A stretch of DNA of 64,000 nt from positions 4,637,058 through 4,701,057 of the forward strand of contig JAUPFP010000007.1 of assembly GCA_036925085.1 (NCBI GenBank). The letters run 5' to 3'. The translations under genes were made by a program, and so were the position numbers. Position 1 is the stretch's first letter, and every line of letters starts with the position of its first letter. The notes under the pieces are model-generated. The model did not search any database, was not told where the DNA came from, and saw only the letters and a list, made by a program, of their open reading frames with translations. Below, piece after piece: positions 3,001 through 64,000 of the stretch. The DNA is from Brachycybe producta. Taxonomy: Eukaryota > Arthropoda > Diplopoda > Playtdesmida > Andrognathidae.

Positions 3001-6000
3001 CAGACTTGATTTCAATTGCATCTTTCTTTGCATTTGCTTCAGACAACGCATCCTTTGCAACTTTATGCAATCCTTTAAACTGATAACGTCGATCACGAAA
3101 AGCACGAACAGTGTCGACATAAAACGAATTTTCACGCTGACAAATAGTTTGATTTTTCTCTTCGATACGAGTGACATGCTTCTTCTTATACGCTTTCTGA
3201 CAGTACTCTTAATTAAACGAGACCAAAAAACACAGACAGTTAAGAATTGATAAATTAGGTAAGTTTGTAAAACGAATACCTCCAAGACGTTTCTTTTCAA
3301 TTTCCGCTTGTTCATAGTACTTCAGTTCATGATAAGCTCGTTGTGGACCATCGGGATACAAAGGCGGAAACCTTTCAGTTTCAAGTTGTTGTTGAATACG
3401 ATGGAACTCTCCACGCGTTGCCGGCACTTCAAACAGAAGTTAATTAAAGAAAATAACACATCTTCAATCATGAATAAAGCCAAAACTTATAAAATTCACA
3501 TAATTTCAGTCAATTCTTTAAAAAAAGACACAATTTTGGTCAGAAATAAATTACAAAATGATGATTTTGGATTTTGCTTTTGATGAGTGCAGTTATTGAT
3601 TAATACAATTTCAGCTTTTTGTGCTTTTACTATATAAAATACATTTTTCATCTGCATAAAATAAATAATTTTCATGCACATTTTGCATTTTTGAAGATAA
3701 TTTTCTATATACATAAAACGCACAATTTCTAAAAACAATTTTCACATTTTCACTAGTTTTTATTTGCTTAAAAGTTTTGGCCGTAATCATTATGTTTAGA
3801 TTAAACCATACTGAATTCTCCTCTCCACGTCCATGGCATAACTCTTTGACAAGTAGCTCCTGGTTTATAGAAGTCGCAAGCAGCACAATCTACTTCATTA
3901 ACCATTGCCGAAGGCTAAAATCATAACGTTAAGTCAGAAACCACGATGACTAAAATAGAGCAACAGCATCACCTGTAATCGGTTCGTTAGAATGATATTC
4001 GGATACATGGCAGCCACATCTAAATGGTAAATAATCGGTTTCTCAAGTCTTGATGGACAATCGCGCAGATTAGAGAGCTGTGTCTCAATGTCGTTACAAA
4101 CTTCGTCGAAGTTTAGAATCTCGGACATTGAAAGTTTTTCTTCTTCGACAATAGAATACTCCATCGAATGTCTAACTCCATCGATTAGCTTTTGAAACGC
4201 TTCAGGAACCTTAGCAATAAAACACAAAATCATTAAGATTGCTTCAAACTCTGATTATTTAGTGTTTCAGGAGCTTGAGCTTTCGAAATAAACTTTTTAT
4301 ATAATAAAATTAAAAAATGTAACCTAACCATTCTAAATCTACACGGAATGTCTGCCCTAAACACTCCGGATTCTAATGCTTCTACATGTCCACCAACATA
4401 CGTCTCCTGATCAAGAACGTGGCCATCGTCCGTCATCTTATTTAAAACCGTTTCTTGTTTATTTGGAAAAATGATGTTAGCGTGGAAGGCTTCGACCATG
4501 AGAAGAGCTTCACAAAGCGTTCCCGAACCCTTCCGTAAAACTTCATCCGGTTCCATAGGTAAAATTGTGCACAGTGCAAAGATAAACGGATGAACGTATT
4601 TCATATAAAGATAATATGTGGCAACAGCATCGGAAACGGAATAATTCGAGAGAACTTGTGGCTGTTCACTCGCGAGACGACACATATCTTCGGGATCTAA
4701 TTCTACTGGATCATACTGAAGCTTGGCCTTTAATCAGAAAAAAAGTAAAACTTTGTTACTTCGTAATTAGAAAAATCTGAACGCTTTCATAAAAACAAAC
4801 TTACTTTTGCAACAGCTTTGAGGTTCTGACTTCCAACTGGCAAATAAGAATCTCGTTTCACCCACCTAAGAAAAAAGAATTTCAAGTATTAACAGTGATG
4901 AAATAGGATTCTTACTTTAGGCCGAACAATTTTCATACTTTAAGCAATCCATGTGGATACAAGGGCGACAAAGATAATCTCCTTCCTTGTTAACGGAGAA
5001 ACCAATCTCTTTTACCATGTCAATGTTATGAAATTTTGCCCTTGCTTCAACAAATGGCCTTTGAAAATAAATTACACGCTATAAAATAATGTAGACGAAT
5101 GACAAAGAGTATAAATGTAAACAAACGACACGCGAATTGAACAACACTTATTCACGAATTCAAACATGTAATACAATAAACTTATTATTAAATTTGCATC
5201 TAAAAAGCTAAGATAAAAATTTCATTTTCTTCATATAGGAATAAATGAAAATCGTCAAATGTAACAAATCCCGAATTCTTTTAAATGCAGTTCTAAACGT
5301 GAAAAACGAATCTGACAACTCTGGATAAAGAAAAAAAAAAGAATCGTTCGTCTCGTACCAATCGAACATATCACCGTTGTAAGTCACAAACACATGCGGC
5401 TTCACGTCCAAAATATGCTGAAAAAATCTTTGTAGAAGAGCAAATTCATTTGGTTCATTAAAAATGACAAAAGGTCCTTCTAATTCAGGCTTCGGTGTGT
5501 ATTCAAAGTCCTCGATGTCAGACAAGACAATCTCTCTGTTTGTGATCAAGAAACCCTGCAACACAATTAGAAACTTTCAACACATTGATTTCAATGCTGA
5601 TGGGAAAACATAAAAGAAACCCGCTCTCGACCTGGCCGTCGATCATGTAAGAAATCATCATAATTTGATCCGTAGCCGAATCTGGAAATTTCAGTGGCAG
5701 TTTAGTCGTTTCGATATCGTAAGCAAGAACGCAGACGTCCGGCCAATCGATCAAATCTTCACGTTTCACAATCTCTGGTCGATCTAAACCTCTCACTTTA
5801 ACTGTATACCAATGGCCAACAAAGATCTTTAGATCGATGGCAATTCTGACGTGATATGGAACGTCGTGTTCTCTGATGTCAATGATACTATCCATGTGAT
5901 CGGTCATTTTCTTGGATGTCGACGGCTCGTTCGAATCAGCCAGATTGCTGCAAAAAAATGGCGACATGAATCAATTAAATTCATTGAAAATAATTTATTT

Positions 6001-10154: not shown

Positions 10155-15570
<5,416 letters not shown>

Positions 15571-18351: not shown

Positions 18352-20469
18352 ATGTGCTCAGAAACCAGTGATTTTCTACCTACGACAACAATTCAACGAG
18401 ATACTGGTCGTAGAAATGATTATATCATTGGATATTTTTTTCTGTGGTCAATTCTGGCATGTTTTGCATTTTTTCTAAATGTCGTAAACGTGGACTGGAA
18501 GACAAATCCATTTTGGTTAGGTGTTGCTCTTGTGGTCATCACTGGACTTCTTCAAGGAAGTGTCTTGGAATTAGTTGCGATGGCCACAACGACAGCAATC
18601 TTGGGTGGTCATCGAAGACATCCTCGTAGTGCACCGTTTGCTCACTTGACACTCATTCTCAATTATAATCTGTTGGCCGTTGCGGAAGATGACGTCGACG
18701 AGACGTTCAGAACGATGTACGAAGCCTTCGTCGGCAACATGTCGACCAAGATCTCGGCCGTTCTCGTCAGTGCCACAAACGATCCACGGTTGAAGCAGTA
18801 CGAACTTCAATGTCGAGACACTTATCGTCAAAAGATCTACGATCTTCTTTTAGACGAAGGAATGGCTTTTGCAAACGGACGTTACGATCTTGTCGACGGT
18901 TTCCGTTTGAGATATGTCTGGTTTAAATACGCTAAAATGTCTCGTAATGATTTTATGGATGGACACTTGGATGCCGTCGCACGAAGGCATGCAAACAATT
19001 TTATGTGTATTCACAGGGTAAGTAGAGTCCTCAAGAAGTGTGGTCAGTACCAGGACCTCATGTTGTTGTCAGAAGGAGACAACAGTGCATTCAGTTACAC
19101 AGATGTTAGATATTATGGAAAATTGGCTCGACAATACGGTCAACCTCTGTTCTACGATTCGGAAGACGTTCGTAACATTATAGGACGACGCTTCGACTAT
19201 ACACTCGTCTTAGATGGAGACACTGCCGTGGCACCAGGAACAGCCTTTGAGTTACTTTCCATTGCTGCTGCGTATCCGGACCGTGGTATCGTCCAACCTG
19301 CAATACGAATGGACGTCAAAGAAGACTCCACTATCTTTATGCACATCGAGAATGTTAGACAGCTAGTTAACGATCCAATTACGAACGCTTTTACGGAAAT
19401 GCTTGGACAGAGTGGTTTCTATGGTAAGGGACTGGTACGAAACCGTGTTTATATCGATAACGTCATCGGTACAAGACAAAATCCGATCGAGAGGGTCCCG
19501 ATCGATGTTCTCAGCCACGATACGTTCGAGGCAGCTTGCTTACGTCCAATCTATGCAAGCAACGTATTTCTTCTAGAAGCTCCGTGCCTGAATTACGTTA
19601 CGTGGGACATGAGAGAGACCCGTTGGAACAAAGGAGAGATTATCTTAGCTATGTATTTTTGGCCGAATACGGTTGGACGCTTATTACGTTATCTACAACG
19701 TCGAACACACGGATCGGATTTTGTACCAACTAAAATGCGAACGGAGTCGCATTTTGATTTTGTGAGTGCCTACGTTGCTCATTCCGCACTTCGAAACATG
19801 TTCATGAAACCGTTGCTATTACTCTTCTTGTTAGTTCACATGTTTGTTCGTCTTCATTATCCGTTTGCTCCGATCTGCATAATCATGATGTTGATCTTAG
19901 TCTATCCAAAGTTTGCCGTGTTTAACGGCAAAAACTTCAAATTCATTTTGATTGAAGTTATGTGTTCCGTGTTCCAGTTTACTCCGGAGGCTTTCGTTGG
20001 ATCGGCTCGAGTCTTTAGTGCAGTTCGTGGAAACCTGGATAAAAATGCAAAATGGGTGCCACAACGGGCCGTCGAAGAAGAGTTCAAGAAATGCAACCCT
20101 TTCGTGTCCAGTTACCATCACTTGTGGATCTTCTGTGTTTCTGCCACAGTCATCACAGCAGGTATCGTGTTACTGGATCAACTGGCTGTCAATCGGAACT
20201 ACCTCATGTTCACAATGATTGGAACGTTATTCCTACTGCCTTTCTTTACTGCCATTACGACCATGACTCCGGCAACACTAAGGTCTAGGAGTGTTCGGCA
20301 TGTTTATGTTTTAATGAACACCGCAACTCAATGGATCAAGTTCTTATCTCGAAGAAACATCGAGCTAAAAATCAAACTTTTACGACAAATGCTCATAGCG
20401 TCAACTCCACACATACCTGGGAGTCAAAACTGTAAAGCAAAATCCTTCTATTTGGATGCTCTTGTATGA
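18352..20469 (+). CDS. Intronless membrane glycosyltransferase, NdvB/OpgH-like (GT84/GT2-type processive synthase core)
   Basis: 705 aa in one exon, stop at 20467-20469. Two N-terminal membrane segments (about residues 25-75), a cytosolic GT-A domain (about 90-440), then four or five membrane segments at the C-terminal end. The catalytic signature of processive GT2-like synthases is complete: VSATND (D144), LVLDGDTAVAPGTA (DGD 288-290), VLSHDTFEA (D390) and RETRW (421-425). The surrounding wording (GIVQPAI, GKGLVRNRVY, LSHD, Y..W...ETRWNKGE) recalls the GT core of bacterial cyclic beta-1,2-glucan synthase NdvB and, more distantly, OpgH, which use UDP-glucose at the inner membrane. The product here is unknown. 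It is not chitin synthase (no QRRRW, no EDR). Lack of introns beside intron-rich genes suggests gene transfer or retroposition; codon use looks like the neighbours'. The first ATG of the open frame was chosen. Confidence 0.8.
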   Translation: MCSETSDFLPTTTIQRDTGRRNDYIIGYFFLWSILACFAFFLNVVNVDWKTNPFWLGVALVVITGLLQGSVLELVAMATTTAILGGHRRHPRSAPFAHLTLILNYNLLAVAEDDVDETFRTMYEAFVGNMSTKISAVLVSATNDPRLKQYELQCRDTYRQKIYDLLLDEGMAFANGRYDLVDGFRLRYVWFKYAKMSRNDFMDGHLDAVARRHANNFMCIHRVSRVLKKCGQYQDLMLLSEGDNSAFSYTDVRYYGKLARQYGQPLFYDSEDVRNIIGRRFDYTLVLDGDTAVAPGTAFELLSIAAAYPDRGIVQPAIRMDVKEDSTIFMHIENVRQLVNDPITNAFTEMLGQSGFYGKGLVRNRVYIDNVIGTRQNPIERVPIDVLSHDTFEAACLRPIYASNVFLLEAPCLNYVTWDMRETRWNKGEIILAMYFWPNTVGRLLRYLQRRTHGSDFVPTKMRTESHFDFVSAYVAHSALRNMFMKPLLLLFLLVHMFVRLHYPFAPICIIMMLILVYPKFAVFNGKNFKFILIEVMCSVFQFTPEAFVGSARVFSAVRGNLDKNAKWVPQRAVEEEFKKCNPFVSSYHHLWIFCVSATVITAGIVLLDQLAVNRNYLMFTMIGTLFLLPFFTAITTMTPATLRSRSVRHVYVLMNTATQWIKFLSRRNIELKIKLLRQMLIASTPHIPGSQNCKAKSFYLDALV

Positions 20470-21159
20470 CAGTTCTAGTTGTGGACAGACTGGTCATTAA
20501 ATTTCGGGGGACGTATGTTTGTGGGATTATAGGTCCTCACAGTGGCCAGCAGGTCCACATACTCTTCAAAGATGGTTGTTCGGGCGATTCTACGCCTCAT
20601 ACGAGATCTGTATTTATTTAGATAACTAATAAATTATATGAATAATGCTGAAAGTATGTATGACGGAGGAAAATTAGTATTTTTTTTTTTTGCTTTTTGT
20701 TCTCATATTAGAAATTAATAATAAAATCAAAAGGAAATAAAGAGTATTCTTTCAATTAGATCGAACAAATTTGTTGCCTTATTTAGCAACTTTAGCACAA
20801 TCTATATAACTCTGCAGACTTACCTTGAAGGTTAGCAGCTGTTAATCACAAGAATGCACCACTTTACGATATTATTATTTTTATTAATTATTATTATTAT
20901 TGCTGATGCGTGGTGGCATAAGCACACATGACCCAAAGTATAGTAAAACCTAAGGTAAAACGACAATTTCGAGACGTAGAATATTAAGCACGTATTTTTA
21001 AACGTTGCTTAAAATAAACTTAAACTGTATTGTTTCAATCACAAGTTTTTCTTTACTATCGACACAATGAGATTTATATTTTGTTTAAATTGATAATATA
21101 TGTTTAAATACAGGGTGAGGTTCAAATAGCTAAAGATGTACCTGTTGTATGTACCTTAA
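20470..21159. other. Convergent 3' spacer between glycosyltransferase and ANAPC13
   Basis: 3' UTRs of the two convergent genes are expected here. Contains an ATT-rich stretch near 20872-20905. No further gene seen. Confidence 0.5.
20720..20741 (+). terminator. Polyadenylation signals of the glycosyltransferase gene
   Basis: Two AATAAA hexamers (20720-20725 and 20736-20741) about 250-270 bp past the stop codon, on the right strand. They are common by chance in AT-rich DNA. Confidence 0.4.
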
Positions 21160-21732: not shown

Positions 21733-21935
21733 AAGGCAATTAGAAATCGGGACAAACAGAAGTGGGCTCCGCCCTTTTTATGACGACCAGCAACTTCTAA
21801 TTGGTTTGTTGTGTGGTTCGACCTTGAAAAGGGCGGAGAATGTGACGTCAGACTACATAACCAACCAATTAGAAGTTGCGTTCGGCATAAAAAGGGCGGA
21901 GCCAATTTCTGTTTGTCCCGATTTCTAAGTGCCTG
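21733..21935. mobile_element. Palindromic MITE, family B, copy 4
   Basis: AAGGCAATTAGAAATCGGGA at the left and the complement ending GTGCCTG at the right; arms about 85 bp; inner ACGTCAGACTACATAACC. It abuts the palindrome at 21943. Confidence 0.85.
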
Positions 21936-22297: not shown

Positions 22298-22317
22298 GAT
22301 AATGTTACTATAATAAA

Positions 22318-22594
22318 CTAGCGTTTGGAGGCTTGTGTTTTTTCATAGCGCATGCGCATTCATTGCCATCTCGGTTGGTTTGTATAGGAAAGTGATGGCA
22401 GATTTGCGTTAGCAGCGCCATCTATTGATGACCAATGGAAACTGCCCACGTCTTATAAGGGGCACCGTAGTTTCCATTGGTCATCAATAGATGGCGCTAC
22501 TAACGCAAATCTGCCATATCTTTCCTATACAAACCAACCGAGATGGCAATGAATGCGCATGCGCTATGAAAAAACACAAGCCTCCAGACGCTAG
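22318..22594. mobile_element. Long near-perfect palindrome P2
   Basis: Arms of about 130 bp, from CTAGCGTTTGGAGGCTTGTG at the left to the complement ending CGCTAG at the right, around a loop CTTATAAGGGGCAC near 22456. Only a few mismatches separate the arms. Flanks share TATAATAA (left 22309-22317 region, right from 22596), a likely 8-9 bp target duplication. Confidence 0.8.
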
Positions 22595-22654
22595 TCTATA
22601 ATAACAGCGACTACTTGTTACAGCGACAACTAGCCTCTCCCTCCAACCCACCAA

Positions 22655-23560
22655 AATTTAAGAATTTTTTTTAATGGAGATGCTAGCGCTATCTATTGTT
22701 ATTCTCTTAAACATGAGATATGTGTATATATTTTTTCGAATTTTAAATTTTCCCTCTTAAACTCAACCCCCCCCCCACTAACATAGCCTAACCCAACATT
22801 AAACCACTAACCTAACCCAACATTAAACCACTAACCTAACCCAACACTAACCCACTAACCTAACCTAACCTAACCTAACACTTTATACATCGACTCTATG
22901 TAATAGTTGATTGTAGTACCACCTATAACTGAAAAATAATTAAAAGTTCTATGTTAAAAAGCCTATACATCAAAAAAAAGTTTTTGCTTTTTGGCAAAAA
23001 TTTTTTTAATGGAGATGGTGGCTCCATCTACTTTGGCTGAATTTTTTTTAATTTTGTTTAATTTTGTTTTTAATGAAGATGCTAGCGCCATCTATTGTTA
23101 TTCTCTTAAACATGAGTTATGTGCGTATATTTTTTCAAATTTTAAATTTTCCCTCTTAAACTCTAACCCCCCCCACTAACATAGCCTAACCCAACACTAA
23201 CCCACTAACCTAACCTAACCTAACACTTTATACATGGACTCTATGCAATAGTTGATTGTAGCGCCGCCTGTCTTCAAACATTTCAAACATTAATTAAAAA
23301 AGTTCTATGTTAAAAATCCTATACCTCAAAAAAAAGTTTTTGTTTTTTGGCAAAATTTTTTTAATGGAGATGGTGGCTCCATCTACTTTGGCTGAATTTT
23401 TTTAATTTTGTTTTAGGATACATTCAAGGTTGGGAAGGTTCCTAAGGATAATTTATTAGCTCTGCTGTTGAAGTTGTCAGTTTGGCTGTGGGGTTAACAT
23501 CAGTGCCTTCTGAACTGGTGTTCATGGGTTCCAGCCTCTGTGGTGTCTGTTGAATTTTAA
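22655..23560 (+). repeat. Composite repeat family H, tandem copies 3a/3b with tRNA-like end
   Basis: First body about 22655-23045, second about 23040-23425, each with TGCTAGCGC(T/C)ATCTATTG, a CCTAACCCAACA/CCTAACC tract, TACATGGACTCTATG and TTTGGCAAAA. It ends in a tRNA-like segment (about 23455-23560) whose B box is degenerate (GGGTTCCAGCC). Very close to 9310-9790. Confidence 0.65.
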
Positions 23561-39158: not shown

Positions 39159-41397
39159 TAGGGTGGTCCTTATTTTTTAAGTTTTTAAAAGTCTTTGTCT
39201 GACCCTCCCAGGTTGTTCTATTATGTATAAAATTATGTTGTGCAAAGTTATATTACAGTCAAGCAATATTTAGGGGTAGCTCAATGAATATGAAATTCTT
39301 CATTTTTTATGATTTTTCTCTATTATTGCAGGTAAAGTTAAAAATTAATAGTTATGGCTACTGCAACCAGAAAAACCAATACTTTATGGCTTATTGGGCC
39401 AGAAGAGACCTCTATCAAGGGATCAAAGTTACCCTCTAATAAACAAGTGCTCAGTGTATTTTTTATCACCACCGAACCTTAAAAAAGACAATCCGTGAAA
39501 GTTCCCGTAGTGCTGTAAAAGAAGCTGCAGTATTTTTGGAAAAAGCCTGGATTCCCATAAGACATGAACAGGATTGTGTTAAGAAGACAGAACAGCTTCA
39601 TGAGAAGTGGGTCAAACTGAAAAAAAATTGTAATAGGAAAAGTGCTGTTCAGCAAAGTCATGAGAGTCAGTTTAAAGATGACCTCGATAATTTATTTGAC
39701 ATTGCTCATAAGGATGCCCTCACAATGATTACTATTCTAGAAGACAAGTATTTTCTACTTGCACAGAGAGAAAAAGGTCGGCTTCCTGTGATTGTTTCAG
39801 GTTTTAGGTGTTAACCAGCTTCTAGGTGTGCCTAAGTTGCAGGCAGGCACTGGGGGTGTCAGGCAACTGCTGTTGCAGATTTCCTTAAAGAATGGGATGT
39901 TGTCGATCAAGTGAAAGCTATGTGCTTCGATACCACATTTAGCAACACAGGTCACAGAAATGGAACTTGTATTCTGTTAGAGCAGAAATTGCAGAAGGAT
40001 CTTCTGTACTTTTCATGTCGTCACCATATCTTAGAACTTGTTCTTGCTAGTGCATTTAATGAAGCCATGGGTTGTACCTTTTCTGGCCCTGATGTAACCA
40101 TATTCAAGCGATTCACGCAATTCTGGGTTAAAATAGATCAGTCATCTTACATGTCTTTAGACAGCAGTGAAACTGTACAGCTTGTGATGAAAAATGAAAA
40201 AGACAATGTCATTGAATTCTGTACTAACCAGCTTCAACAAACTGACACTAAAATCAGAGATAATTACAGAGAATGTTTAGAATTAGCTATTATCTTTCTG
40301 GGAGGTACACCACCACGAGGTGTGCGATTTTTAGCCCCTGGGGCTGTACATCATGCAAGATGAATGTCCAAAGCAATATACTCACTAAAAATGTGGCTGT
40401 TTCGTAACCAGTTTACTCTCACTGCAAGAGAAAAAAAAGGACTATGCAACATATGTGTCTTTCTTGTTTATGTCTACATCAAGGCTTGGTTCACTGCCCC
40501 ACTTCTCATTACTGCAGCTTTCAATGATCAACAGCTTCTGCAAAAGCTTAGAGATTATAAAAAAATCAATCCTTCAATATCCAATGTTACTTGCAAGAAA
40601 TTTGAGGGACATTTTTGGTACTTAAGTGAGGAACTAGTTGGATTGGCATTTTTTGATGACAGTGTGCCAATCAAATCAAAACAGGCAATGCTAAAATATC
40701 TTTATGAAAAGGAAGGTGCAGATCAGCCTCTGAAGAGAATCCAAAAATGCCAGTGGCTCCGTTAATATGAGAATAGAAGACTTTGTATCGAAGAACTCAA
40801 TGCACTTATTTGACCATCTTGGCATTTCCAAAAGGTTCTTAGAACATGATCCAAAGATATGGCATCTGCGAGAAGACTACAAGCAAGCTAAGGATATCAT
40901 AAAACATTTACAAGTTGTGAATGACAATGCTGAAAGAGGTGTGGCATTGATGAAAGAGTACAATCCAATATTAACAAAAAATGAAGATCAGAAACAGTAT
41001 TTGCTTCAAGTTGTGAAAGAACATTCTAGTCGTTATCCAGATTGCAAAAAGACTACATTAGCTACTTTGTAGTCATTACATGTTTGGTCCAATGTTAATA
41101 AAATGTGCATAAATTACATTGTTGTGTTTTAATTGTAACTTATGTATACAAAATAGTTCATTCTAATTATTTCAATATTAGTGACACTAGATAAACAATG
41201 GTATATACATTTTAGGAGAATACATAATGATTACGCTATTACGAAAACTTTGAATTCATTGAGCTACCTCTAAATATCAATTAAAATTTATAAACTTTTA
41301 TGTAGACTATTTTTTTGGTTGGGAGAACAATTCTGGGGGGTCAGAACATGAAATATTTGCATTTAAAAATTACCATATATATCAAGGGACCACCCTA
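39159..41397 (+). mobile_element. Degenerate hAT-like DNA transposon, full length, with 8-bp target duplication
   Basis: 2,239 bp. Ends TAGGGTGGTCC and GGACCACCCTA (11 bp exact), flanked by GTGTGCAT at 39151-39158 and 41398-41405. Subterminal TAGGGGTAGCTCAATGAAT (39269) is mirrored by ATTCATTGAGCTACCTCTAA (41256). The 8-bp duplication, N-terminal DNA-binding-like part, an acidic CFDTT.SNTG motif, CRHH and a C-terminal VNDNAERGV region favour the hAT superfamily or a close relative. One gene inside, on the plus strand, no longer open (see next entry). Confidence 0.85.
39354..41072 (+). pseudogene. Transposase-like gene of the hAT-like element (inactive)
   Basis: Conserved pieces in order: KTNTLWLIGPEE; ESSRSAVKEAAVFLEKAWIP and HEQDCVKKTEQLHEKWVKLK; DLDNLFDIAHKDAL; KAMCFDTTFSNTGHRNGTC; FSCRHHILELVL; PDVTIFKRFTQFW; VRFLAPGAVHHAR; KAIYSLKMWLFRNQFTLTA; KFEGHFWYLSEELVGLAFFD; VNDNAERGVALMKEYN. 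I recall this protein family as a repeated, unnamed one in arthropods and cnidarians. The frame shifts near 39470, twice between 39800 and 39880, and near 40750; a TGA at 40361 stands where the family has Trp. Hence not a working transposase, but recent enough that most of it is readable. Confidence 0.75.
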
Positions 41398-62779: not shown

Positions 62780-63159
62780 AACCCTTGATAGATATTGCTC
62801 TTACAAATAACACTGCCACCACCACCATAATAAGGTCATTATATGAGATAGAAGTCGTTCAGATTCCTATTTGAAAGACTTAACTTCCTTATTGATGTTA
62901 CAATAACTTGTTAATTTGTCAACCATAATTTTGTGGTTGCGACAAGGGTTCCCATTTAATGTACGGGTTATATAATAAGTTCTTGTGTCTGATTTTGTAA
63001 TTTAACATTCAGATTTCAGTTTTGTTTTCAATTGTTCAGTTCGTTTGTGTATTTTTTTAAGTACTATCTACCAAGTTAACAACAACGAATAATGGAAGTG
63101 CAGGTGCATAAGGAAAATAGGAATCCAGTACTATTTCTCAGCAATAATTTCAGTATTGA
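61966..63159. other. No gene seen
   Basis: AT-rich, TTATTATTATTATTA at 62155-62172. Open frames are low complexity. Confidence 0.5.
62737..62776. repeat. (CT)n microsatellite, about 20 repeats
   Basis: Uninterrupted CT dinucleotides. Confidence 0.95.
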
Positions 63160-63915
63160 TTGATGAATTTGGAGTATTGGTGAATTTTGGAATTTTGGTG
63201 AATTTTGGAATATTGGTGAATTTGAGAATATTGGTGAAGTTGGAATATTGATGAATTTTAGATATTTATGAATTTGGAATATTGGTGAATTTTGGAATAT
63301 TCGTGAATTTGGGAATATTGGTTGAATTTGGGAATATTGGTGATTTTGGGAATATTGGTGAATTTGGGAATATTGGTGATTTTGGGAATATTGGTGAATT
63401 TGGGAATATTGGTGATTTTGGGAATATTGGTGAATTTGGGAATATTGGTGAATTTGGGAATATTGGTGAATTTGGGAATATTGGTGAATTTGGGAATATT
63501 GGTAAATTTGGGAATATTGGTGAATTTGGGAATATTGGTAAATTTGGGAATATTGGTGAATTTGGGAATATTGGTGAATTTGGGAATATTGGTAAATTTG
63601 GGAATATTGGTGAATTTGGGAATATTGGTGAATTTGGGAATATTGGTAAATTTGGGAATATTGGTGAATTTGGGAATATTGGTAAATTTGGGAATATTGG
63701 TGAATTTGGGAATATTGGTAAATTTGGGAATATTGGTGAATTTGGGAATATTGGTGAATTTGGGAATATTGGTAAATTTGGGAATATTGGTGAATTTGGG
63801 AATATTGGTGATTTTGGGAATATTGATGAATTTTGGAATATTCGTGAATTTGGAATGTTGGTGAATTTTGGAATATTCTTGAATTTGGAATGTTAGTGAA
63901 TTTTGGAATATTCGT
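63160..63915. repeat. 18-bp minisatellite, about 30 regular plus degenerate units
   Basis: Unit GGTGAATTTGGGAATATT, with common variants GGTAAATTTGGGAATATT and GGTGATTTTGGGAATATT in the centre (63305-63830), and shorter, decayed units at both edges. Because 18 is a multiple of three and the unit has no stop in several frames, long Gly/Asn/Ile/Phe-rich (plus) and Gln/Ile/His/Tyr/Ser-rich (minus) frames stay open; they are side effects. Confidence 0.95.
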
Positions 63916-64000
63916 AATGTTATTTTTCACCTGCCTCTGGGTAGGGACAGGAAAAAGACTTAATTTAGCTTTTAAGAGAAAAGCTTAAGATTGTTTTAAC

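What the first reader, a model, noticed from the sequence alone, without database searches (positions are those of the whole stretch)
18352..20469. NdvB/OpgH-like glucan synthase core in an animal genome, without introns
Seen: a 705-aa open frame with the full D, DxD, (SH)D, RxxRW set and multiple membrane segments, unlike chitin synthase. Known: this arrangement and the flanking wording belong to bacterial GT84/GT2 glucan synthases such as NdvB and OpgH. Inferred: horizontal acquisition, then adaptation to host codon use. A free-standing GT core without NdvB's large phosphorylase-like parts may make a short glucan or another polymer, for instance in cuticle or egg shell.
Basis: partly seen in the sequence, partly recalled or inferred. 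Interest (0 to 1): 0.85.

Follow-up and report, generated by a model that had tools for sequence, protein, structure and literature searches.

The report
NdvB-like sugar-polymer synthase in arthropod
An animal (probably arthropod) chromosome carries an unbroken, apparently single-copy gene for a membrane enzyme whose core resembles the bacterial machine that makes cyclic glucans, but cut down to the polymerase part and lacking two features that machine relies on, so it may build a sugar polymer in a different way; whether it came from bacteria is still open.

The parts
18352..20469 (+). single-exon ORF, 705 aa, GT84-like membrane glycosyltransferase
18403..18603 (+). two N-terminal membrane helices (residues 18-46 and 54-84)
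   Evidence: hydropathy; model
18772..18774 (+). Ala141, at the place of the first UDP-binding Asp (Cgs D527)
   Evidence: Cgs residue from PMC10901819 passages
18781..18783 (+). Asp144, kept; D in 38 of 38 NdvB rows
19213..19221 (+). DxD (D288-G-D290), Cgs D624/D626
19333..19404 (+). IF1-homology region (model helix 328-351); four alignment columns including the Cgs priming Tyr694 are empty between P342 and I343
   Evidence: Y694
19513..19521 (+). SHD with catalytic-base Asp390 (Cgs D739)
19612..19626 (+). RxxRW (R421, R424, W425; Cgs R773 = R424)
19759..20292 (+). C-terminal membrane and interface helices (residues 470-647), with W568 invariant across the NdvB and OpgH rows
20628..20633 (+). 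AATAAA, possible polyadenylation signal
   Evidence: sequence
5208..5564 (-). host neighbour: DNA polymerase B exonuclease exon (consistent with POLE)
   Evidence: Pfam PF03104
11967..13522 (+). host neighbour: two P-type ATPase exons
   Evidence: Pfam PF00122 and PF13246
21181..21417 (-). host neighbour: Apc13 (ANAPC13) exon
   Evidence: Pfam PF05839

Best explanation
[quoted passage not shown] Shown by computation: homology, fold match, DxD/base/RW residues, missing first UDP Asp, missing priming-Tyr loop, no N-terminal scaffold, cyclase or phosphorylase part on the chain. Inferred: the cytosolic GT domain uses a nucleotide sugar, most likely UDP-glucose, with D390 as base and R424/W425 at the acceptor end; D144 may take over part of the role lost at A141; chain growth starts on a free or lipid-bound acceptor rather than on the enzyme's own tyrosine; the product is a linear beta-glucan, perhaps 1,2-linked. 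Its ultimate source is probably a bacterial NdvB-like gene acquired long ago, with the donor no longer recognisable.
Against: A141 could mean weak or no activity. Only 23 of 45 residues invariant in the 38 NdvB rows are kept, and 7 of 11 columns that separate NdvB from OpgH match neither. The tree placement is not firm: grouping with OpgH is not rejected, p-AU 0.143. The AlphaFold alignment was window plus NdvB sequences, so the fold match is not independent of it; mean pLDDT is only 70.8 and 101 residues are under 50. No expression data and no eukaryotic homologues were available.
Confidence: 0.55

Rival explanations
1. An old eukaryotic or animal GT2 family inherited vertically, sharing deep ancestry with NdvB/OpgH, with no recent transfer.
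For: In the best tree it lies outside the sampled bacterial NdvB on a very long branch, with at most 20% identity to any row; host-like codon use.
Against: No Pfam model matches it at E<=1, and a broad animal family would probably have one (inference). The relatives found are bacterial, but the collections searched hold only prokaryotes, viruses and plasmids, so this says little.
Confidence: 0.3
2. A divergent pseudo-enzyme or regulatory protein: fold kept, catalysis lost or changed.
For: The first UDP Asp is Ala where all 44 NdvB/OpgH rows and BcsA have Asp.
Against: DxD, SHD, RxxRW, Q315 and E393 are all intact, which loss of catalysis would not be expected to maintain.
Confidence: 0.2
3. 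It derives from the OpgH (MdoH) lineage rather than NdvB.
For: Stand-alone length of about 700 aa like one MdoH model (E 0.0016); hhalign 95.1% to OpgH; AU test does not reject it, p 0.143.
Against: Profile score 23.7 against 45.3 bits; of 11 columns that separate the two families it matches NdvB at 4, OpgH at 0, neither at 7.
Confidence: 0.12
4. Bacterial contamination or assembly artefact.
For: Bacterial-type protein without introns.
Against: Sits at 4.66 Mb in a 7.8 Mb contig between host genes; host-like GC3; overall identity to the bacterial rows aligned is only 16-25%.
Confidence: 0.02

Closest known systems
[quoted passage not shown]
   Same: GT-A core, membrane helices on either side, DxD, SHD base, RxxRW, GKG, QP, conserved W after the membrane helices; best fold match among the chains compared
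   Different: No N-terminal scaffold, cyclase or GH94 phosphorylase; first UDP Asp is Ala; priming-Tyr694 loop deleted; R776 is Lys; RGDW reads KGEI
OpgH/MdoH glucosyltransferase
   Same: Stand-alone size, SHD..E, RxxRW, DxD
   Different: Weaker profile match; OpgH rows have GHN in place of GKG; NCBIfam MdoH cut-offs missed by hundreds of bits
Processive GT2 synthases BcsA and hyaluronan synthase
   Different: About 10% identity in the structural alignment; BcsA has TED and QxxRW in place of SHD and RxxRW and a PilZ domain
Animal GT2 enzymes in the same genome: egghead-like (L099) and two chitin-synthase-like loci (L002, L003); names by recall
   Same: GT2-type superfamily
   Different: Egghead-like scores below zero with the NdvB profile; the window protein has no PF03142 match

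Membership tests
NdvB/Cgs (GT84) | sequence match of the GT84 core | tested here: met
   45.3 bits and hhalign 98.2% over 55-607; shuffled and egghead-like controls below zero
NdvB/Cgs (GT84) | DxD, catalytic base D739, RW motif | tested here: met
   D288/D290, D390, R424/W425
NdvB/Cgs (GT84) | first UDP-coordinating Asp (D527) | tested here: not met
   A141; D in 38 of 38 NdvB rows
NdvB/Cgs (GT84) | self-glucosylated priming Tyr (Y694) | tested here: not met
   four-column gap between P342 and I343; Y in 38 of 38 NdvB rows
NdvB/Cgs (GT84) | cyclase and GH94 phosphorylase on the same chain | tested here: not met
   protein ends at residue 705; whether such domains exist elsewhere in the genome was not tested, as the PF10091 search did not complete
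NdvB/Cgs (GT84) | makes beta-1,2-glucan from UDP-glucose | not testable with these tools
   needs biochemistry
NdvB/Cgs (GT84) | fold of the GT84 domain with its membrane helices | tested here: met
OpgH/MdoH | NCBIfam equivalog score | tested here: not met
   16.7, 16.1 and 12.9 bits against cut-offs 419, 1037 and 829
OpgH/MdoH | family-specific residues against NdvB | tested here: not met
   0 of 11 separating columns, from only 6 OpgH rows
Chitin synthase | PF03142 match | tested here: not met
   no Pfam family at E<=1; PF03142 finds two other loci in the genome and not this one
Gene acquired from bacteria (HGT) | nesting within a bacterial clade in a tree that includes eukaryotes | tested here: inconclusive
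   outside NdvB in the best tree; three nested alternatives not rejected; no eukaryotes sampled

The most novel reading that the evidence does not exclude
An arthropod lineage captured a bacterial cyclic-glucan synthase, kept only the polymerase core, dropped the self-priming tyrosine and altered the nucleotide pocket, and now makes its own non-chitin, non-cellulose structural or signalling glucan.
Probability: 0.3. Interest if true: 0.85.

Novelty: new variant of a known kind. Interest (0 to 1): 0.6.

Why it matters
If the enzyme is active, an animal would make a polysaccharide with a GT84-type synthase, comparable to the tunicate cellulose synthase case (recalled; a larvacean cellulose synthase paper is cited in PMC13342648). 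It would also show that the GT84 core can work without the covalent tyrosine primer and without the length-control and ring-closing parts that belong to the bacterial enzyme.

Tried and rejected
Viral origin: three scans of viral contigs (2, 22 and 59 pattern matches, none a relative by tblastn) and tblastn of phages at E<=1 (no match) found nothing; the scans only see sequences that share the query's conserved peptides. Retrocopy: one match only in the genome and no poly-A tract just after the ORF (sequence). Organism: the mitochondrial contig looks arthropod-like (gene names other than COX1 by my own reading, GC 18.8%; CCTAA repeats near 22.8 kb). Literature: seven searches listed no report that I could recognise of an NdvB/OpgH-type gene in an animal genome; of these 14 and 16 returned nothing, and 33, 58 and 102 showed only 20 of 61, 15 of 549 and 12 of 1,029 papers. 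An eighth (62) was on Strigamia. I saw titles and abstract starts, plus passages of PMC9601646, PMC4368715, PMC10901819 (outline 78), PMC11842490, PMC13342648 and PMC13389597. The main text of the HGT compendium PMC13342648 has no 'glucan' or 'NdvB'; its tables were not read. A first check of whether bacterial relatives continue into the rest of NdvB used a wrong reading frame and was redone. An earlier count said that I339 stands at Y694; the alignment shows a gap between P342 and I343 instead. The genome search for PF10091 (part of the NdvB remainder) did not complete. The fold comparison is VIA-align's second look at Foldseek's matches; plain Foldseek searches of PDB and viral models were not accepted. 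No change of odds was needed when the draft was checked against the calls.

Full report
What is there. The ORF at 18352-20469 (+) encodes 705 aa without a break. A stop codon is the second codon before the ATG, and an AATAAA lies about 160 bases after the stop. The longest stop-free run in 300 Markov copies of the same DNA is 213 codons. The window is at 4.64-4.70 Mb of contig C7 (7.8 Mb) of a 295.3 Mb, 442-contig assembly; the protein has one match in that genome at E<=0.001, itself. Of ten neighbouring stretches scanned, four have Pfam matches: a DNA polymerase B exonuclease exon, two P-type ATPase exons and Apc13. GC3 is 0.44 against 0.39 for eight neighbouring open frames (those frames were taken from the ORF list and may include some intron sequence). 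The genome carries an animal mitochondrial contig of 15,359 bases with COX1; I read it as arthropod, which is inference.

What it is. Pfam gives nothing at E<=1 and NCBIfam only sub-threshold MdoH. tblastn against plasmids gives 95 records at E<=1, of which 20 were listed: 15 are annotated as glucoamylase-family or GH94 proteins (NdvB type), best Hoeflea, E 3e-7; three Cupriavidus records at 9e-3 are OpgH. These come from many phyla at 21-29% identity of the best segment, so no donor stands out. Of 85 loci examined (those 80 plus three plasmid NdvB and two OpgH), the matched ORF itself continues into the rest of NdvB in 77; the other eight are the two OpgH, four cut by the end of the locus, one where the rest follows in another frame (L060) and one apparently free-standing (L080). 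So a free-standing core is rare among the bacteria seen, but the patterns came from full NdvB proteins and favour them.

Active site. In Cgs, D527 and D624 coordinate UDP, D739 is the base, R773 is the RW arginine, substitution of R586 and R776 strongly affects activity, and Y694 carries the glucan primer (PMC10901819, passages). Numbers were carried over through the 8rf9 alignment (paper number = 8rf9 number + 19). D624, D739 and R773 correspond to D288, D390 and R424. R776 is K427. D527 corresponds to A141: the window reads LVSATND where NdvB reads LLSDxxD; the model's strand 134-141 ends at A141, and D144 sits just before the next helix (145-174). Y694 falls in a four-column gap between P342 and I343. 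The place of R586 is uncertain, as the alignments differ. The N-terminal scaffold that holds the primer in Cgs is also absent, which fits loss of the primer tyrosine.

Origin. In a 46-row LG+C20 tree the window joins NdvB against OpgH and BcsA (100/98) but stays outside the 38 NdvB rows (99/99), on a branch of 4.08. The program warns of long branches. Holding the window with OpgH, with Rubrivirga (L010), with an alphaproteobacterial group or with Bacteroidota costs 21.5, 14.8, 18.7 and 11.4 log units, p-AU 0.143, 0.092, 0.081 and 0.104: none is rejected at 0.05 (I chose the groups after seeing the tree). Transfer from bacteria, its age and its donor are therefore open. That the gene has no introns is weak evidence, because the genome's egghead-like gene (name by recall; PF13632 E 1.2e-39) also lies in one 533-aa open frame.

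Verdict. A real, host-borne, GT84-like polymerase core, not a full Cgs and not OpgH; most likely an active membrane glycosyltransferase that starts its chain differently from Cgs. Product and role are inference.

Noticed in passing
L080 (Micromonospora contig) 2-1693: GT84-like core (377 bits to the NdvB profile) with no match to the NdvB remainder in the next 3.4 kb; the DADT motif reads DVSS and the priming Tyr is not there in the alignment. Possibly a free-standing, degenerate bacterial GT84.
   Followed up: partly
L041, L050, L072, L074, L082, L084: Acidobacteria loci whose ORFs of 1,489-1,626 codons, closed at the 3' end, carry the GT84 core but match only about the first fifth of the NdvB remainder, so they seem to lack the GH94 part (L082 has a Pfam Glycoamylase domain).
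   Followed up: partly
G000:C1:12697416-12698753 and G000:C17:4027703-4029047: Nuclear contigs hold COX1 copies, one full length against the model with one TAA inside: probable mitochondrial insertions, or mitochondrial sequence joined in assembly.
   Followed up: no
L092/L093 (mitochondrial contig C442): ND4L-ND4-ND5 on the same strand as COX1, ND2 after CYTB, and a stretch near 4800-5099 that recurs inverted near 10761-10943 (gene names by my reading): an unusual gene order.
   Followed up: partly
21734-21934 and 22309-22603: Inverted repeats (53-nt arms at 92%, 135-nt arms at 96%) that look like MITE-type elements.
   Followed up: no
22770-23230: CCTAA-rich stretches resembling the arthropod telomere repeat TTAGG, inside the contig.
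   Followed up: no
39911-41072: Three back-to-back ORFs of 150, 133 and 101 aa; the two tested had no Pfam match at E<=0.01. They look like a broken transposon-type gene (impression only).
   Followed up: no
63076-63930: Long tandem repeat that reads as repeated short peptides in three listed frames.
   Followed up: no
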